Below are positions 2 to 6,234 of a stretch of 6,234 nucleotides of DNA, one piece after another. Location of the stretch: the NCBI GenBank assembly GCA_028875335.1, contig JAPPEF010000182.1:1-6234 (forward strand). Reading direction: 5' to 3'. The position numbers and the translations under genes were made by a program. Numbering within the stretch: the first letter of the stretch is position 1; each line of letters starts with the position of its first letter. Below the pieces are notes generated by a model. It saw nothing but the letters and a program-made list of their open reading frames with translations, was not told the DNA's origin and did not search any database. The DNA is from Gemmatimonadota bacterium (GTDB taxonomy: Bacteria; Latescibacterota; UBA2968; UBA8231).

Positions 2-2209
2 ATCGTCGCAGGATCTCTGCCAATCGCCAGAAGCGGACTGGCTCGACCTCGGCTTATAGGGACGGAAGAGAGAGGTCATTGGGGTGTATTTGCGCTGTTT
101 TTTGCCGTTGGCTTTGTGGCGTTGGGAGGCGAGGTGCTGTGGACGCGCTATTTGGGACTTTTGATCGCCAACACAGTGTATACGTATACGCTGACCTTGA
201 CCGTAGTGCTAGTGGGTTTGGTGTTGGGGAGCGTGCTCGCCTCCCTGTTCTTTGATAGGACAATACACAGAGCGCGGTATTTCGGCGTTCTCCAGGTGCT
301 TTTGGGGCTGGTAGTACTCGTCCTAATGATGCTTCCATCGGACGTCTGGCAGCGTCTGGGGGAGGAGTGGTGGATTTATGCAGTTTTACTGCTGCCTCCT
401 GCTGTTTTAGGAGGAGCATCTTTTCCGCTGGCGGTGAGGATGGTGGTCGAGGAGGCATCCGCAGCGAGTGGGGGCACGGGGAAGATCGCCGCAGTCAACA
501 CGTTGGGGGGAATCGCGGGAGCGTTGGCGATCGGCTTTGTGGGTCTGCCATTCTTCGGTCTGAAGAGCAGTCTCCTCTTCATCACGGGCACGAGCTTGGC
601 CGTCGGGTTCGCTGCGTGGATCTGGCTCGACCGCACGTTTACCCTAGCCGTTAAAGCGGCATTCATAGGGCTCTTCTCGTGCGCATGGCTCGGAGTTCCC
701 TACCTGCTGCCCACCCGTATTCCCGCCGACTTTCTGGGCGAGCGGGAAGAGCTTGTCGACTTCCGCGAGGGCTACGGCTCCAACTTGGCGGTCATCCGCC
801 AAGATCGAGGACTTCAACTCGAGATCAACCGCTGGTGGCAGGGCAGGGACCGCAAGACACACCAAGTAATGGCGGCCCATGTCCCCATGTTGTTGCATCC
901 CGATCCCAAGCGGGTTCTCTTGGTCGGCGTCGGCACCGGCCAGACCGCGGCTCGCTTTCTGCTCTACTCGATTGACCGCCTAGAGTGCGTCGACATTGAA
1001 CCCACCATCTTCAGTTTTATCCGCCCCCATTTCGACTCCCGTTGGATGGAAGATCCGAGAGTCGAACTGATCGGTGCCGACGGCCGCAACTATCTGCGCC
1101 ACACCTCCTCGACTTACGATGTGATTTCCCTCGAATTGGGCCAGCTTTCCCGTCCCGGTGTGGCATCTTTCTATACGGTCGACTTCTATCGCCAAGTAAA
1201 AAAACGGCTGCGTTCTGGCGGTTTTCTGGTTCAATTTGTCCCCTTATCCCTTTTGACCACCGACCATTTCCGCAGCACTGTGCAGAGCTTTCTCGAGGCT
1301 TTCCCCCACAGCCTGTTGTGGTACAATACTTCAGAATTGCTGCTCATCGGCAGTGGACGGGATTTCGCCATTGATCGGGCCATTCTCGAAGGACGTCTAT
1401 CTAACGAAAAAATTCGCCGGGATCTAGAGTACAGCCACTGGGGAGGCCCCCTCTACTGGCTCAACCGACCACAGGTCTTTTGGGGCAGCTATTTGATGGG
1501 ATCTGGTGGTTTAGCCAAACTGGCGAATGAGGCCCCTGTTTACAGGGACGATCGGCCCGTTCTCGACTACGCGGTCGCTCGCGCCTTTGTAAATCGGACA
1601 AACGCGCTCCCGACGCTCGATCTTTTGCAAAAGTATTTGGAACCCGTTGCCACCTTGATGTCTGTTGGGTCATATGAAAAGAGGACCATTGAGGAAATAA
1701 GGAGCAAAAACCTGCGGGAAATTGCCGTTAGCGCCGCCCTCCGGCAAGCCAAGGTCCTAATCGCCGTCCGCAACTATCTGGACGCCGCGAAACTATTGGC
1801 AGCTACCCTGCAGCAACTCCCCGAACACCTAGTAGCTCGGCGCACTCTCGCGGATGTACTGATGCGCTTGGGCCGCTTTGCAGAAGCGAGGGTCCATTAC
1901 ACCCAAGTCGTACAAATCGCCCCGCAAGATGTACAGGCCTTGGACGGCTTGGCTCTGGCATTCCACCAGTTGGGGCACCTCGACGAAGCGATCCACCACT
2001 ACAAGGCTGCACTGCGGCTACAGCCCGACCGGGCGGAAACCTGTAGCAATCTCGGCGGAGCGCTAGCCCGGCGAGGCAAGCTAAAAGAAGCCCAGTTTTA
2101 TCTCGAAAAAGCACTCCAGCTCAAAACTGACTTCGCCGATGCCAAACGGAACCTCGCCCAAGTACAAGCGGCCTTACAGCGAAGGGAGAAATCGCGCACT
2201 ACACCGTAA
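2..2209 (+). CDS. Membrane-bound spermidine-synthase-like protein with TPR repeats (5'-partial)
   Basis: The frame is open from the first full codon, so the start lies upstream. The GTG at 116 falls inside a transmembrane helix and is not a credible start. The visible 735 residues hold about seven hydrophobic segments (residues ~27-235). The first contains ALGGEVLWTRYL, a close match to the conserved ALGYEVLWTR signature of fused MFS/spermidine-synthase proteins. A Rossmann methyltransferase-like domain follows (~255-440), with SAM-site-like GVGTG (309-313), acidic DIEP (331-334), GADGRNY (358-364) and YDVISLE (372-378). The family-typical DDRPVLDY is at ~517-524. About four TPR units occupy ~578-725. 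True spermidine synthases carry a catalytic Asp in a D-S/A-x-DP-type motif after the YDVI strand. Here the stretch reads SLELGQLSRPG, so aminopropyl transfer to putrescine is doubtful. The family assignment is firm; substrate and role are unknown. It ends in TAA and converges on the minus-strand selenoprotein gene. Confidence 0.88.
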   Translation: MVAGSLPIARSGLARPRLIGTEERGHWGVFALFFAVGFVALGGEVLWTRYLGLLIANTVYTYTLTLTVVLVGLVLGSVLASLFFDRTIHRARYFGVLQVLLGLVVLVLMMLPSDVWQRLGEEWWIYAVLLLPPAVLGGASFPLAVRMVVEEASAASGGTGKIAAVNTLGGIAGALAIGFVGLPFFGLKSSLLFITGTSLAVGFAAWIWLDRTFTLAVKAAFIGLFSCAWLGVPYLLPTRIPADFLGEREELVDFREGYGSNLAVIRQDRGLQLEINRWWQGRDRKTHQVMAAHVPMLLHPDPKRVLLVGVGTGQTAARFLLYSIDRLECVDIEPTIFSFIRPHFDSRWMEDPRVELIGADGRNYLRHTSSTYDVISLELGQLSRPGVASFYTVDFYRQVKKRLRSGGFLVQFVPLSLLTTDHFRSTVQSFLEAFPHSLLWYNTSELLLIGSGRDFAIDRAILEGRLSNEKIRRDLEYSHWGGPLYWLNRPQVFWGSYLMGSGGLAKLANEAPVYRDDRPVLDYAVARAFVNRTNALPTLDLLQKYLEPVATLMSVGSYEKRTIEEIRSKNLREIAVSAALRQAKVLIAVRNYLDAAKLLAATLQQLPEHLVARRTLADVLMRLGRFAEARVHYTQVVQIAPQDVQALDGLALAFHQLGHLDEAIHHYKAALRLQPDRAETCSNLGGALARRGKLKEAQFYLEKALQLKTDFADAKRNLAQVQAALQRREKSRTTP

Positions 2210-2224
2210 ATATGGACTCTCTTT

Positions 2225-3121
2225 TCACCGCACGAGCGTCATCTTGTGGCTCTCTGCTCTATTTCCGCTACTCAAACGGTAAAAGTAAATGCCAGAGGGT
2301 ACTAGCCGCCCTCCGGCGTCCCGACCTTCCCAATTTACCCTATGACGACCGGTCTGCCGCCGCCCAACCACCAGATTGGCCACAGGCCGTCCCAGTATAT
2401 CGAAAACCTGCAAATGCACTTCTGTTTCACTGGACAGACTGAAAGGGATGATCGTGCCGCTGTTAAAGGGATTGGGGTAATTCCTCTCCAACTCAAAATT
2501 CCTTGGTTGCCCATCCGACATTTCAAGCTCTGCGGTCGCCTCTAGCTGTTCCAGTTCCTTATCTCCAGCCACAAGCGCCGCGCCCAAATTATTCAGCGCT
2601 CGCTCGATGTGCTGGCGGATAACCTGTTCGTTGAATCGGCGGGCAACAGCGCCCACCGAACGATAGCGCAGAATCCCCTCGTGGTCGATCACCGCATAGT
2701 TGTGCTGGGTAAAACCGTAGAGGGCTCCTACTGTACTGGCCTGGAGAAGCAGAGGATAGGTCGTCCCTGTCCGCTGGCGAAAACTCAAGTCCACCTGTCG
2801 GCTGATGCCGTCCGCTACATCAACGCCAATCAAGGCGAATTCCTCCCCTTTAAAATCCTGCCAAATCCGCTCTATCTTCGCGGCCTCCGCGAGACAGTGA
2901 CTTCAGATGAAACCAAAGAAGTTGATGAGGACCACCTTGCCGCGGAAGTCGTTCAGAGACACATAGTCGCCCTCTAGCTGCTGCAAAGTGAAGTCCGGCG
3001 CTAGATCGCCCACCTCGGGCACTTGCCCCATCGTCCCTTGGACACTTAACAGCAGAGCGATCAGTGGCCCCCCAAAAACGCCTCTGCTCCCCCTCACGCA
3101 ACAGTTCATCGCCTTGACCAT
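2225..3121 (-). CDS. Predicted secreted selenoprotein: TlpA/AhpC-like redoxin (UxxC) with C-terminal FlgD/T9SS-like domain
   Basis: Two reading-frame segments (3121-2906 and 2902-2225) share one frame and are separated only by TGA at 2905-2903. Read through, they give 298 residues. A signal peptide lies at ~1-33 (hydrophobic GPLIALLLSV). The redoxin domain (~36-165) opens with VGDLAPDFTL and then KVVLINFFGFI. TGA is codon 73, followed by SHC, so it occupies the first Cys position of CxxC, with the resolving Cys at 76. The domain continues through EEFALIGVDV and YAVIDHEGILRYR. After a charged linker comes the C-terminal domain (~210-298): NYPNPFN at 214-220, VFDILGRPVANLV, SGIYFYRL, and a final KMTLVR, typical of FlgD-like/type IX sorting domains. 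The likely job is thiol-disulfide or peroxide reduction in the periplasm or at the cell surface. The usual cis-Pro region reads QHNYAVID, without Pro. The ATG at 3121 is preceded by in-frame TAA at 3160-3158; the ATG at 3109 is an alternative. No strong Shine-Dalgarno site is visible. A nonsense mutation or sequencing error remains possible. Confidence 0.85.
2872..2897 (-). promoter_or_regulatory. Putative bacterial SECIS hairpin
   Basis: On the minus strand the hairpin begins 5 nt after the TGA. The 5' arm CTGTCTCGCGG pairs with the 3' arm CCGCGAAGATAG over 11 base pairs, including one G-U wobble and one bulged A. The apical loop is AGG, or GAGGC if the closing pair is open. The loop starts about 16 nt after the TGA and carries G in the first two loop positions. 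These traits fit known bacterial SECIS elements, which lie in the coding region just downstream of the UGA and are bound by SelB. The element also encodes LAEAAKI-type redoxin residues, so coding and structural constraints overlap. Pairing was done by eye; no folding energy was computed. Confidence 0.72.
2903..2905 (-). other. In-frame UGA, predicted selenocysteine codon (Sec73)
   Basis: This is the only in-frame TGA among roughly 1,970 codons of the four genes. It falls exactly at the first catalytic Cys of the redoxin motif (FI-TGA-SHC, aligned to the family's TWCPPC). The same gene terminates at another TGA (2227-2225), and Trp is encoded by TGG throughout. Wholesale reassignment of TGA is therefore unlikely, and context-dependent Sec insertion is the best reading. 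Confidence 0.83.
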
Positions 3122-3190
3122 CTTGGTATATTTTATCTGTTTTATTGGATCCGTAATTTACATTGATTCCCGTGGACAGAAGAAGATTCA
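3122..3190. promoter_or_regulatory. Divergent intergenic region of the selenoprotein and PPIase genes
   Basis: These 69 bp separate two divergent start codons and must hold, or overlap with, both promoters. The left part is AT-rich (around 3127-3148, with TATATTTTAT), unlike the flanking coding DNA. A purine-rich AGAAGAAG stretch about 6 nt before the ATG at 3191 is the probable ribosome-binding site of the PPIase gene. I see no convincing paired -35/-10 hexamers on either strand. Confidence 0.4.
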
Positions 3191-4837
3191 ATGAAACACC
3201 TCCTACTGGCTTGCTTAGTTTTTTCAACTAGCTGCAGCCCTCCCGAAGAATCTCTCGTGGCGGAAGTTGGCCCGCACCAGATCAGCGCACGCCTGTTGCA
3301 CCTCTATGTGGAAGAACTGCCCGACGGGCTACGCACCCAAAAGACAGGCGATGAGGCCCGCCAGTACTACCTCCAAGCCCTGATTGACCGCCGACTTTTG
3401 CTGCTAGAGGCCCGTTCCCGAGGACTCGATACCACCAGCGATTTTCAAAATTCAGTCCAAGACGCCGTCAATGCTCGGGTCAGGTCGATATATAAATCAC
3501 AGGAAATAGCTTCTAAAGTCAAAATATCAAATGACACAGTACGTCGCTATTTCGAAAAGGAAGGCTACGGTCGAGAGCGTCTGCTCAACGCCATCAAAGT
3601 AGGGAGCCGGGCTGCCATCGACACCGTTCTTCAGGAACTGAGGGCAGGCCGTCCCTTTGAGGAGGTCGCCCAGGCTCGCTCTCTGGACGAGCGCTCGGCC
3701 GAACGGGGTGGCGAGTTGGGCTTTATCGGCCGGGACCAACTAGAGTCACTTCACATCCCACCGGTGGTCTTCAAGACCCTGCCTCAAGATCAACTCTCAG
3801 AGCCCCTGCCCGCGGGTTCGGCCTGGCATGTTCTGCGCTTTAGTGAAGACCGCTCGGCCTCTTATGAGAAATACCAAGCGAGGATCGCCAGTCTACTCTA
3901 CCAAAAGCGTCTCGCCCAGGTAGAGGCCGAACACTTGGAGCAACTGCGCGATTCCTTCAAAGTGCGCCTCAACCTGTCTGCCCTGCGCGAGCTGGTCAAC
4001 GCCTATCAGGCAAAGCAACCCACGCTCATAGAAGGGAATTCGACGGCTTTATACACCTATAACGACGGCGAAATAACCCTGGGGCAAGTCCAGGAATTTT
4101 TGCGTCAGCGGAATATCAGTTTTGGCCTTGCCGACAGCGCCCAAGCTGTGGTCACCCTAAATCGGTATTTTTTGGAAGCCCATCTGATCCAGGAAGCAGC
4201 CCGAAAAGATGGCTTTTACCAAACGCCTGAGATGCAGAAGTTTGTCGAGCGCACCGCGAATGCCAAACTTCTTGAAATCGTGAGAAAGAGCGTCATAGCC
4301 GACCTAATTGACCTCTCCGAAGAAGACGTGCGCCACTACTACGACACCCATTTGGAGACCTTCCGCCACAGCGAGGCCGTATGGATTGAGGAAGTGCTGC
4401 TCCCCACTCAGGCCGACGCCCTGCAGGTCAAAGCCCAAATAGAAGCAGGTGCACCCTTTGAGCAATTCGTCGATAAGAGCTTGAGGGCCGACGCACAAAA
4501 ATACAATGGGCGATATCACTTCCACATGCTGGGAAGAGTCCGCTATCCCGTGCTTGTACCCGCTGTTTTCCAATCCCAACAGGGCCAACTTGAAGGTCCT
4601 TTGCAAGTAGAAGGAGGCCACTCTGTATTTCGCGTCATAGAACGGGAAGAAAGCAGCATTGAACCTTTTGAGGCTGTTCAACAGCGGGCCCGGGCACTAG
4701 TCCGTTTAGAGCGGGAGACCCAAGCGCTAAATGCCTTTCTGGTGCAACTAAGAAAAAAATATGCTGACCAGATCAAAATCTACCCCGACCGCCTCAAGGG
4801 AGCAGTGCCCGATTCCCTATTGCTAGCCCAAAACTAA
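3191..4837 (+). CDS. Peptidyl-prolyl cis-trans isomerase lipoprotein, SurA/PrsA-like, two parvulin domains
   Basis: The 548-residue protein starts MKHLLLACLVFSTSC, a short signal peptide with a lipobox-like FSTSC. Cys15 is the likely lipidated residue, although Ser at -3 is unusual. An N-terminal SurA-like chaperone region follows (~20-125, with YLQALIDRRLLLLEARSRGLD). The first parvulin domain (~130-220) carries the hallmark GGELGFIGRDQL at 173-184 and ends in AWHVLRFSEDR. A second chaperone-type helical segment (~285-390) precedes a diverged second parvulin-like domain (~395-487, EAVWIEEVLLPT to HSVFRVIERE). In the latter the usual GG-x-LG motif is replaced by GRYHFHMLGRV. A helical tail follows. 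The expected role is folding or escort of exported proteins in the periplasm while membrane-anchored. The start is supported by AGAAGAAG just upstream. It is divergent from the selenoprotein gene and ends in TAA with no clear intrinsic terminator. Confidence 0.9.
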   Translation: MKHLLLACLVFSTSCSPPEESLVAEVGPHQISARLLHLYVEELPDGLRTQKTGDEARQYYLQALIDRRLLLLEARSRGLDTTSDFQNSVQDAVNARVRSIYKSQEIASKVKISNDTVRRYFEKEGYGRERLLNAIKVGSRAAIDTVLQELRAGRPFEEVAQARSLDERSAERGGELGFIGRDQLESLHIPPVVFKTLPQDQLSEPLPAGSAWHVLRFSEDRSASYEKYQARIASLLYQKRLAQVEAEHLEQLRDSFKVRLNLSALRELVNAYQAKQPTLIEGNSTALYTYNDGEITLGQVQEFLRQRNISFGLADSAQAVVTLNRYFLEAHLIQEAARKDGFYQTPEMQKFVERTANAKLLEIVRKSVIADLIDLSEEDVRHYYDTHLETFRHSEAVWIEEVLLPTQADALQVKAQIEAGAPFEQFVDKSLRADAQKYNGRYHFHMLGRVRYPVLVPAVFQSQQGQLEGPLQVEGGHSVFRVIEREESSIEPFEAVQQRARALVRLERETQALNAFLVQLRKKYADQIKIYPDRLKGAVPDSLLLAQN

Positions 4838-5060: not shown

Positions 5061-6234
5061 ATGAGACGCCCGAGTTACTCCTCTCACTGCCCTGCCCTGA
5101 TTCTCATCTTCTTGCTCGGCCTGATCCTCGTGCCACCCCAGCTAGCTGACGCTCAGAAGCGGGGCTATCGGATCGCCGGCAACCAAATCATTGTCAACTC
5201 CCCAGCCCACTGGGAGCGTTGGAGTATGCCCATCCATGCCGTGAACATACTCCCCTCCGGCGGCGTTCACCCCCACTTCTCCCGTTCCCGATTTAATGTC
5301 CTAGACGACTTGGAGACCTATAATCGTCGCTTGCCAGAACTCAGGCGCAAGAAAGGTCAAACCGTTGTCTCAAATATCGACAGCACTGAAACGCTGGATG
5401 TCTTCGGTAACGTCATACGCGATCGCAAGAAAAATCCTCTCTACACCCATCTATCTCGCATAGGTATCAGCCGCGTTGGATCCAATCCCAGGGCCGCGGC
5501 CAATATTCTGGACGGCGACCCCAATACCTTCTGGGAACCCGATTTCAACGACTCCATAGAGGATTGGTGGGTCGAGGTGGACCTCGGCCGGAGCCTGCCC
5601 GTCGACGAGTTGGTCTTAAACTTTGTCGATGAGTCGTTGGGCGATCCCTTCCGCCAGTTCAGAATATTGAGTGCCCCTTTCCAAAAGGTACTCAACCACG
5701 AGGTAAACGAAATTCCCTTTCGCCGCGAAGGCGGCACCAAAGGTTCCAACGAGGACCAGCGGGTGTTCTCTTTTCAGCTAGACCAATTTCAGGCCGATGA
5801 CAACTGGATTGGGGAAACCGTCCAGGTGATCCGCATTGTAGTAACCGATTCCAAATTCGGCCGGGGCCAATTGATCTCAGAGGAGGAATGGTCTGCTCTG
5901 AACTCAGCGGATCGGGGAGATGTTGTCTATTTCGTTAGGAACCAGCGGGGATTCGAAGAACCGGTTGAAAAATCTGTCTACGACAACCTGCCGCCCGAAC
6001 GCCAAGGCAAAATAGAGCACTACATCCGCGAGCGCCCCCGACTGGCCGACATCCAGGTCTGGGGGTTTGGGGACAATCTCAGCCCGGGGCTCGTAGAAGG
6101 GGGCGGCTCGGCCGCCTTTCACGGGGCCAACGATTCCTTTTCTCCGGCCCCGGCATTTGACGGGGACGGAGGCTCCAACTTTATCCACCTAGTCTGGTCT
6201 CCGACGGTGGACCGAGGAGTTCTGTTCGTGGATA
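5061..6234 (+). CDS. Secreted discoidin (F5/8 type C)-like domain protein (3'-partial)
   Basis: The frame runs open from the ATG at 5061 to the window edge, giving 391 visible residues and no stop. A signal peptide is clear at residues 1-32: MRRPSYSSH, a hydrophobic core LILIFLLGLILV, and likely cleavage near LADA-QKRG. A discoidin-like jelly-roll domain follows (~130-338). It shows ANILDGDPNTFWEP (148-160), WWVEVDLGRSLPVDELVLNF (169-188), FRQFRILSA and the late strand VIRIVVTDS. It closes with LADIQVWGFGD (328-338). About 60 residues, partly charged and helix-like (~268-327), are inserted before the closing strand. A second similar unit seems to begin at ~365 (AFDGDGGSNFIHLVWSP, then GVLFVD) and leaves the window. 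Such domains usually bind glycans or cell surfaces. Any catalytic or anchoring part would be downstream, so the overall function is unknown. Confidence 0.8.
   Translation, partial: MRRPSYSSHCPALILIFLLGLILVPPQLADAQKRGYRIAGNQIIVNSPAHWERWSMPIHAVNILPSGGVHPHFSRSRFNVLDDLETYNRRLPELRRKKGQTVVSNIDSTETLDVFGNVIRDRKKNPLYTHLSRIGISRVGSNPRAAANILDGDPNTFWEPDFNDSIEDWWVEVDLGRSLPVDELVLNFVDESLGDPFRQFRILSAPFQKVLNHEVNEIPFRREGGTKGSNEDQRVFSFQLDQFQADDNWIGETVQVIRIVVTDSKFGRGQLISEEEWSALNSADRGDVVYFVRNQRGFEEPVEKSVYDNLPPERQGKIEHYIRERPRLADIQVWGFGDNLSPGLVEGGGSAAFHGANDSFSPAPAFDGDGGSNFIHLVWSPTVDRGVLFVD

What the first reader, a model, noticed from the sequence alone, without database searches (positions are those of the whole stretch)
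2225..3121. Selenoprotein hidden as two split ORFs: UGA at the first catalytic Cys of a redoxin
The upstream 72-codon and downstream 225-codon segments are in the same frame, with one TGA between them. Both sides match one redoxin domain continuously (APDFTL...KVVLINFFGFI / SHCLAEA...FALIGVDV...YAVID). The TGA replaces precisely the first Cys of CxxC, and the second Cys is kept. A random nonsense mutation would be unlikely to hit exactly that codon and leave 225 intact codons after it. Standard annotation would miss or truncate this gene.
Basis: partly seen in the sequence, partly recalled or inferred. Interest (0 to 1): 0.93.

Follow-up and report, generated by a model that had tools for sequence, protein, structure and literature searches.

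The report
Selenocysteine redoxin with secretion tail
A bacterial gene that annotation cuts short at a UGA stop codon most likely makes a single redox protein with selenocysteine in its active site, predicted to be exported out of the cell, because the UGA is kept in the six closest relatives found, which carry genes for inserting selenocysteine.

Summary
Window 3121..2225 (-) is one 298-codon frame broken only by TGA at 2905-2903 (codon 73), at the first Cys position of a redoxin CxxC motif; Cys76 is kept. The TGA stands in 7 of 7 orthologues (dN/dS 0.16 in the redoxin part after it). In 64 genomes of the phylum (Latescibacterota) the 29 best redoxin-domain matches all carry one TGA. A Cys protein 88% identical to one UGA paralogue exists. 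A bacterial-SECIS-like hairpin sits 16 nt after the UGA, and its codons are frozen (mean synonymous difference 2% against 40% elsewhere). Of the six closest genomes all have tRNA-Sec, selA and selD; five have selB, one a fragment. The selenoprotein reading is supported. Beyond it: the protein carries a type IX secretion (T9SS) sorting tail, and relatives carry T9SS genes, so it is probably an exported UxxC ResA/TlpA-like thiol-disulfide oxidoreductase. UxxC redoxin selenoproteins are a known kind; my paper searches found none with a T9SS tail, nor this phylum-wide set with three SECIS types. Sec incorporation, export and catalysis remain untested; the window's own genome is not held.

The parts
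2225..3121 (-). whole selenoredoxin gene, 298 codons plus TGA stop; Sec at residue 73
2903..2905 (-). in-frame TGA, predicted selenocysteine codon (residue 73), first position of the UxxC motif
   Evidence: TGA in 7 of 7 orthologues
2894..2896 (-). codon of the second, kept active-site Cys76 (U-S-H-C)
   Evidence: Cys three codons after the UGA in 36 of 36 aligned UGA genes
2878..2892 (-). SECIS-like hairpin UCGCGG-AGG-CCGCGA; its 3-nt loop (2884-2886) starts after 16 nt from the UGA
3026..3121 (-). probable signal peptide (residues 1-32), judged by eye only
   Evidence: sequence inspection; low pLDDT over most of residues 1-28
2663..3013 (-). AhpC-TSA/Redoxin domain (residues 37-153), ResA/TlpA-like fold
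2240..2479 (-). C-terminal T9SS type A sorting domain (residues 215-294), Ig-like
   Evidence: PF18962 30.2 bits, cut-off 27; TIGR04183 39.4 bits, cut-off 23
3122..3190 (.). 69-bp divergent intergenic region shared with the PPIase gene
3191..4837 (+). divergent neighbour: parvulin-type peptidyl-prolyl isomerase (lipoprotein-like N-terminus by eye)
   Evidence: kept beside the gene in L001-L005 and L021
2..2209 (+). convergent neighbour: fused MFS/spermidine synthase-type protein with TPR repeats (5' end outside the window)
   Evidence: NF037959 49 bits, cut-off 40
5061..6233 (+). next gene, 3' end outside the window; F5/8 type C-like domain just under the Pfam cut-off
   Evidence: PF00754 27.9 bits, cut-off 28.2

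Best explanation
The two ORFs are most likely one selenoprotein gene whose UGA73 is read as selenocysteine with the likely help of a SECIS-like hairpin 16 nt downstream, giving what is predicted to be a UxxC thiol-disulfide oxidoreductase of the ResA/TlpA fold that would be exported through the type IX secretion system. Shown here: the continuous frame, the conserved UGA at the catalytic Cys column, purifying selection on both sides, the frozen hairpin codons, a Sec/Cys exchange between near relatives, and Sec machinery and T9SS genes in relatives. Inferred: SelB and tRNA-Sec insert Sec here; the protein leaves the cytoplasm by an N-terminal signal and is passed on by T9SS through its tail; the low-pKa selenol attacks disulfides (or oxidised thiols) of extracytoplasmic proteins and Cys76 resolves the selenenylsulfide. 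The divergent, co-conserved PPIase gene, and CxxC TlpA-like genes next to several UGA paralogues, fit a role in folding or redox upkeep of exported proteins; this part is speculative.
For: Frame and domain. UGA in 7 of 7 orthologues; dN/dS 0.071 before the UGA (codons 30-72), 0.155 in the redoxin part after it, 0.286 in the tail. Full-window synteny with five contigs (L001-L005) at 90-93% DNA identity. In 64 genomes the 29 best redoxin-domain matches all have exactly one TGA; of the printed rows 42 carry one TGA, one a TAA, one a TAG, the rest no stop. 36 of 36 aligned UGA genes (window plus loci mostly picked because they carry a TGA) have the UGA three codons before a kept Cys. Cys protein P0076 is 87.7% identical over 138 residues to UGA paralogue L026 and pairs with it in the tree (96/80) among UGA genes. 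SECIS: over codons +4 to +8 the mean per-column synonymous difference is 0.024 against 0.40 elsewhere, and 0 of 130 five-column runs elsewhere are as low; 89.5% of stem cells paired against 30-48% when slid; 15 of 28 distinct genes beat 95% of synonymous recodings, against 7.5% of 468 control positions. Machinery: tRNA-Sec at 69-72 bits in 5 of 5 close genomes, ARAGORN tRNA-Sec, anticodon tca, in 5 of 5, and in G051; SelA, SelD in 6 of 6 and SelB over cut-off in 5 of 6. All 30 genomes with a printed TGA match have a selA match; 0 of 18 genomes without one do. Tail and export: TIGR04183 and PF18962 over cut-off; SprA_N and Peptidase_C25 each in 5 of 6 close genomes and 0 of 14 controls. Fold: redoxin core pLDDT 91-98; top solved-structure matches 2ls5, ResA and 3kcm.
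Against: No Sec has been measured. The window's own genome is not held, so machinery is inferred from relatives. Rfam finds nothing in the window, and the window's hairpin taken alone is only modestly better than chance (6% of synonymous recodings as good; shuffle z -2.3, 5 of 200 shuffles as good). 13 of 28 genes do not beat 95% of recodings; in four (second gene of L029, both genes of L064, L086) a quarter or more of recodings are as good. Many paralogue hairpins are weaker than -7.5 kcal/mol or have their loop 15 nt from the UGA. In one search two of five measures (pairs with double change, further pair types) do not exceed shuffles (125 of 500), and the double change G-C/U-A is in four close kin, so about one event. 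The tRNA-Sec search is unspecific at its default E (14 of 14 controls ring, 5 over cut-off); at 1e-10 two of 14 ring. SelB in G005 and selA in G049 are fragments; no tRNA-Sec was found in G045 and G054 although they hold UGA redoxins. The Sec/TGA association over genomes is not corrected for kinship. Signal peptide judged by eye. In five of five tailed paralogues scanned PF18962 is absent or under its cut-off and the tail shows as FlgD_ig (TIGR04183 is over cut-off in L080); three paralogues are too short to have a tail.
Confidence: 0.83

Rival explanations
1. Sequencing error or pseudogene: a Cys codon changed to TGA by error or mutation, and the gene is dead.
For: TGA splits the frame in the standard code.
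Against: Same TGA in 7 of 7 orthologues from separate assemblies, no other stop, dN/dS well below 1 on both sides; 67 other clusters in the protein database have the length of the part after the TGA.
Confidence: 0.01
2. UGA is a true or regulated stop: the gene makes a 72-residue fragment and a separately started 202-residue protein with the T9SS tail, as databases now hold it.
For: The downstream ORF is held as its own protein.
Against: The split falls inside one thioredoxin fold, between strand 63-69 and helix 74-90, and leaves the second ORF without a signal peptide (by eye) although it bears an export tail; the codons just after the UGA are frozen as a hairpin; among printed matches UGA genes occur only in genomes with selA.
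Confidence: 0.05
3. UGA73 is recoded, but mostly as another residue (for instance Cys or Trp by near-cognate readthrough or a reassigned code).
For: Cys homologues exist.
Against: Genome-wide reassignment is unlikely: the gene itself ends in TGA and the three neighbouring long ORFs of the window are free of TGA; tRNA-Sec, selA, selB and selD are present in relatives, and SelD itself carries one in-frame TGA in 40 of the 47 genomes over its cut-off.
Confidence: 0.03
4. A selenoprotein, but a peroxidase (peroxiredoxin-like) rather than a thiol-disulfide oxidoreductase.
For: Pfam AhpC-TSA/Redoxin; AhpE-type peroxiredoxins follow close behind ResA in the fold search.
Against: Sec is not in a PxxxTxxU context (motif as given in PMC13188914); a resolving Cys sits at UxxC; 2ls5, ResA and 3kcm rank first.
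Confidence: 0.15
5. A selenoprotein kept in the periplasm or outer membrane; the tail is only an Ig-like domain and does not direct T9SS export.
For: The tail also matches FlgD_ig; only two T9SS families were checked.
Against: TIGR04183 and PF18962 over their cut-offs; SprA_N and Peptidase_C25 each in 5 of 6 genomes.
Confidence: 0.2

Closest known systems
Prx-like thiol:disulfide oxidoreductase selenoproteins (PF00578, UxxC; PMC13188914 Table 1, PMC1088965)
   Same: AhpC-TSA domain, Sec at the first position of UxxC, Cys homologues, bacterial-type SECIS in the coding region
   Different: This one has a C-terminal T9SS sorting tail; the parts of the two papers that I saw mention no such tail. 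No direct alignment with those family members was made.
Redoxin family selenoprotein (PF08534, UxxC; PMC13188914 Table 1)
   Same: Redoxin domain (43.1 bits, cut-off 26.6) and UxxC
   Different: Only the table entry was seen; relation by sequence not tested
ResA, thiol-disulfide oxidoreductase (PDB 1su9, 1st9)
   Same: Trx-like fold, TM-score 0.86-0.87 by target length
   Different: 24-25% identity; no Sec and no sorting tail (recalled, as is its membrane-bound role in cytochrome c maturation); the window protein scores far below the NCBIfam ResA cut-off (53.8 of 170 bits)
T9SS type A cargo proteins (TIGR04183)
   Same: C-terminal sorting domain over cut-off; T9SS genes in relatives
   Different: The cargo domain is a predicted selenocysteine redoxin
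ResA-like WAxxUGC motif protein (NF041054)
   Same: ResA-like domain with a U motif in its name
   Different: 19.1 of 300 bits: not a member; motif here is UxxC, not UGC

Membership tests
bacterial selenoprotein | in-frame UGA within one conserved domain | tested here: met
bacterial selenoprotein | homologues with Cys or UGA in the same column | tested here: met
bacterial selenoprotein | SECIS hairpin: loop 3-9 nt, G in first two loop positions, 16-37 nt from UGA, stem 4-16 bp, MFE at most -7.5 kcal/mol (model as given in PMC13188914) | tested here: met
   window: loop AGG, 16 nt, 6 bp, -8.0 kcal/mol; codon constraint. Several paralogues miss the energy or, at 15 nt, the distance
bacterial selenoprotein | selA, selB, tRNA-Sec and selD in close relatives | tested here: met
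   six closest genomes: tRNA-Sec, SelA, SelD 6 of 6; SelB over cut-off 5 of 6, fragment in G005
bacterial selenoprotein | machinery in the window's own genome | not testable with these tools
   no whole genome held
bacterial selenoprotein | Sec found in the protein | not testable with these tools
   needs mass spectrometry or 75Se labelling
UxxC Prx-like / redoxin selenoprotein | PF00578 or PF08534 domain with Sec codon at UxxC | tested here: met
   U-S-H-C
peroxiredoxin (TxxU type) | PxxxTxxU/C active site | tested here: not met
   sequence reads NFFGFIUSHC
NCBIfam ResA (NF002854) | score over the curated cut-off | tested here: not met
   53.8 of 170 bits
T9SS type A cargo | C-terminal sorting domain | tested here: met
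   TIGR04183 39.4 bits, cut-off 23; PF18962 30.2, cut-off 27
T9SS type A cargo | T9SS genes in close relatives | tested here: met
   SprA_N and Peptidase_C25 each in 5 of 6 close genomes, neither in G005; other components not tested
T9SS type A cargo | N-terminal signal peptide | tested here: inconclusive
   hydrophobic N-terminus seen by eye; no predictor at hand
T9SS type A cargo | actual secretion | not testable with these tools
   needs experiment

The most novel reading that the evidence does not exclude
Latescibacterota run an exported, possibly surface-displayed selenoproteome: paralogous UxxC redoxins with at least three SECIS types and different outward modules (T9SS-type sorting tail, or Ig plus dockerin-like end), some in operons with a CxxC TlpA-like partner. 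They would be the first selenoproteins known to be sent out by the type IX secretion system and would carry selenium-based disulfide chemistry to the outside of the cell.
Probability: 0.5. Interest if true: 0.75.

Novelty: new variant of a known kind. Interest (0 to 1): 0.6.

Why it matters
If true, the 67 near relatives in the protein database are N-terminally cut, with the catalytic half missing; the only source names seen for them (P0012, P0035; also the distant P0090) read 'T9SS type A sorting domain-containing protein'. It would extend selenocysteine use to predicted T9SS cargo, in an uncultured phylum for which my paper searches found no selenoprotein report. It also offers a natural set (recent Sec/Cys exchange, three SECIS types) for testing why Sec is kept in an enzyme facing the outside.

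Tried and rejected
Pseudogene or read error: rejected. Alternative genetic code: not supported. Rfam hit for the hairpin: none. Close Cys orthologue (80% or more identical, full length): none among the 120 listed of 3610 matches; only 7996 candidates were scored.

Paper searches: 'selenoprotein' + 'type IX secretion' + 'selenocysteine' 0 papers; 'selenoprotein' + 'T9SS' 1 paper and 'selenoprotein' + 'sorting domain' + 'thioredoxin' + 'selenocysteine' 1 paper, the same Porphyromonas CRISPR paper PMC13055991, listing only; 'selenocysteine' + 'extracellular' + 'bacterial selenoprotein' + 'signal peptide' 1 tick paper, listing only; 'selenoprotein' + 'Latescibacter' 2 papers: the passages of PMC8318568 name a Latescibacteria bin and discuss selenoproteins of another organism, and PMC10340089 was seen in the listing only. 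PMC1794560 was seen in passages. Library: open-licence PubMed Central only; no preprints, few subscription papers.

A first run of the codon test failed on a wrong pattern and was repeated. In one search the 17 genes were picked by a pattern that contains the SECIS stem, which would be circular; the same 17 are exactly the 17 top scorers (86 bits or more), where the scored stretch begins some 26 residues after the UGA, past the hairpin, so the pick does not depend on it. In one search one row under 20 bits (a second stretch of L022) was dropped. TGA position was not checked for the TGA rows of G034, G038, G039, G040, G041 and G048:C96, which did not pass the search.

Full report
What is there. 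On the minus strand, 3121..2225 holds one 298-codon frame with a single internal TGA, codon 73 at 2905-2903. Standard ORF calling breaks it into a 72-aa and a 202-aa piece. Pfam sees one AhpC-TSA domain running across the TGA (residues 37-153, 59 bits, cut-off 26) and a C-terminal Por_Secre_tail (30.2 bits, cut-off 27); NCBIfam gives TIGR04183, T9SS type A sorting domain, 39.4 bits against a cut-off of 23. The motif is U-S-H-C.

The UGA is conserved. A protein search scored 7996 candidates and listed 120 of 3610 matches: the top 68 clusters (the window's own and 67 others, 80-92% identical) are 195-203 aa long and cover 67-68% of the query, the length of the part after the TGA; the five of the 67 that I printed start just there. 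A genome scan found five contigs at 94-97% identity over the redoxin region, titled Latescibacterota/Latescibacteria or Gemmatimonadota/Gemmatimonadetes; all five genomes fall in one phylum set of the genome tool. The full window aligns with all five at 90-93% DNA identity in the same gene order. A sixth genome, G051, adds a further orthologue. All 7 orthologues, window included, have TGA at this codon and no other stop; mean dN/dS is 0.071 before it (codons 30-72), 0.155 in the redoxin part after it and 0.286 in the tail.

The wider family. In 64 genomes of the phylum, 54 have a redoxin-domain match at E 1e-6; the 29 best matches all carry exactly one TGA, and in the printed rows 42 have one TGA, one a TAA and one a TAG (both in G032), the rest none; further matches were not printed. 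In 36 aligned genes, drawn from the window and from loci mostly picked for having a TGA, the UGA stands at the same column with Cys three codons later. Homologues with Cys at the UGA column include P0074 and P0076. P0076 is 87.7% identical over 138 residues to the UGA paralogue L026 and pairs with it in the tree (96/80), among UGA genes: a recent Sec/Cys exchange. The tree of 48 rows (36 UGA, 12 Cys chosen by me) needs four label changes; several rows have long branches and the tool warns about one join.

The hairpin. Right after the UGA lies UCGCGG-AGG-CCGCGA (2892..2878), its loop 16 nt from the UGA; a 56-nt fragment folds at -18.8 kcal/mol, z -2.3 against shuffles, 5 of 200 as good. It fits the bacterial SECIS model as printed in PMC13188914 (SECIS section read). 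In the 17 closest genes, codons +4 to +8 (Leu-Ala-Glu-Ala-Ala in the window) show a mean per-column synonymous difference of 0.024 against 0.40 elsewhere; none of 130 five-column runs elsewhere is as low; with one row for the window's close clade, 0.036 against 0.52, 0 of 117. Across two SECIS types in the same register, 15 distinct sequences keep 89.5% of cells paired against 30-48% when slid, including a G-C to U-A double change in four; these four are close kin, so this is about one event, and two of the five covariation measures do not exceed shuffles. A third type, with a GGUC-like loop, occurs in the distant group. Scored against synonymous recodings, 15 of 28 distinct genes beat 95% of recodings, against 7.5% of 468 control positions; the window itself stands at 6%, and in four genes a quarter or more of recodings are as good.

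The machinery. tRNA-Sec over the Rfam cut-off, at 69-72 bits, lies in 5 of 5 close genomes (at that E the search also rings in 14 of 14 control genomes, over cut-off in 5), and ARAGORN calls tRNA-Sec with anticodon tca in 5 of 5. At E 1e-10 it is in 42 of 64 genomes and in 2 of 14 controls, E. coli and M. jannaschii. Over curated cut-offs: SelB 44 of 64, SelA 45 of 64, SelD 47 of 64; SelD itself carries one in-frame TGA in 40 of those 47. Among the six closest genomes SelA, SelD and tRNA-Sec are in 6 of 6 and SelB over cut-off in 5 of 6, with a fragment in G005. All 30 genomes with a printed TGA redoxin have a selA match (in G049 below the cut-off); 0 of 18 genomes without one do (one-sided p 6e-7; 8e-5 if only the 54 genomes with a redoxin match are used), not corrected for kinship. 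Two of the 30 (G045, G054) show no tRNA-Sec. The window's own genome is not held.

Fold and likely function. AlphaFold2 with a 51-row alignment gives block pLDDT 91-98 for the redoxin core and 86-95 for the Ig-like tail, joined by a helix; pTM is 0.56, so their mutual placement is open. The best solved-structure matches are 2ls5 (putative disulfide isomerase), ResA (1su9 and others) and 3kcm by fold, with AhpE peroxiredoxins close behind, and 3kcm and 2ls5 by sequence. With UxxC and no PxxxTxxU site, a thiol-disulfide oxidoreductase is more likely than a peroxidase; this is inference.

Export. SprA_N (in an open frame of about 2,100-2,190 aa) and a Peptidase_C25 domain (PorU-type; naming recalled) are each found in 5 of 6 close genomes, not in G005, and in 0 of 14 control genomes. 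With the sorting tail and a hydrophobic N-terminus seen by eye, T9SS export is predicted, not shown. The divergent neighbour is a parvulin-type PPIase, kept beside the gene in L001-L005 and L021; a role in folding of exported proteins is a guess from this.

Relatives of the thing. Of ten paralogues scanned, five (L080, L028, L059, L081, L031) have a FlgD_ig tail over cut-off, with PF18962 absent or below cut-off; TIGR04183, tried on L080 only, is over its cut-off (26.4 of 23). L024 has no tail domain; L026 and L055 are as short. L063, L064, L071 and L088 carry Ig-type domains and a dockerin- or EF-hand-like end; Dockerin_1 is just under the Pfam cut-off, while NCBIfam dockerin_GC and choice_anch_D are over theirs in L064, the only one of these tried.

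Against what is known. UxxC Prx-like and Redoxin selenoproteins are listed in PMC13188914 (outline, SECIS section and two of three parts of the selenoprotein section seen) and in PMC1088965 (passages; 22 Prx-like sequences in the Sargasso Sea set). So this is a new variant of a known kind. What I did not find, within the searches, is a selenoprotein with a T9SS tail or a report on Latescibacterota selenoproteins. No NCBIfam selenoprotein model reaches its cut-off on it.

Verdict. That the gene is a selenoprotein: about 0.95. That it is also an exported UxxC oxidoreductase: about 0.6-0.7. The score of 0.83 is for the statement as worded, with function and export marked as predicted.

Noticed in passing
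L080 1162-2501; L099 1625-4041; L095 1284-2775: A CxxC TlpA-like redoxin gene lies next to a UxxC redoxin paralogue on the same strand (touching or close), with a divergent DUF6029 gene in L080 and L099: a possible two-step redox pair.
   Followed up: partly
L064, L066, L071, L094: In another group of the phylum UxxC redoxins with Ig and dockerin- or EF-hand-like ends come in tandem pairs, in L094 near an ECF sigma factor and a redoxin gene without TGA.
   Followed up: partly
L095 (L029) 562-2252: Two different UGA redoxin genes lie in tandem on one short contig.
   Followed up: no
L026 573-1190 (-) and protein P0076: Sec-codon and Cys versions 87.7% identical over 138 residues: a recent exchange.
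   Followed up: yes
SelD loci, e.g. L079: Selenophosphate synthetase carries one in-frame TGA in 40 of the 47 genomes over the SelD cut-off.
   Followed up: no
G032:C12, G032:C31, G032:C34, G032:C9: One genome shows two tRNA-Sec matches, and the TAA and TAG redoxin rows are also from it.
   Followed up: no
window 2-2209: Fused MFS/spermidine synthase-type and TPR protein, convergent with the selenoredoxin and kept in the five aligned contigs.
   Followed up: no
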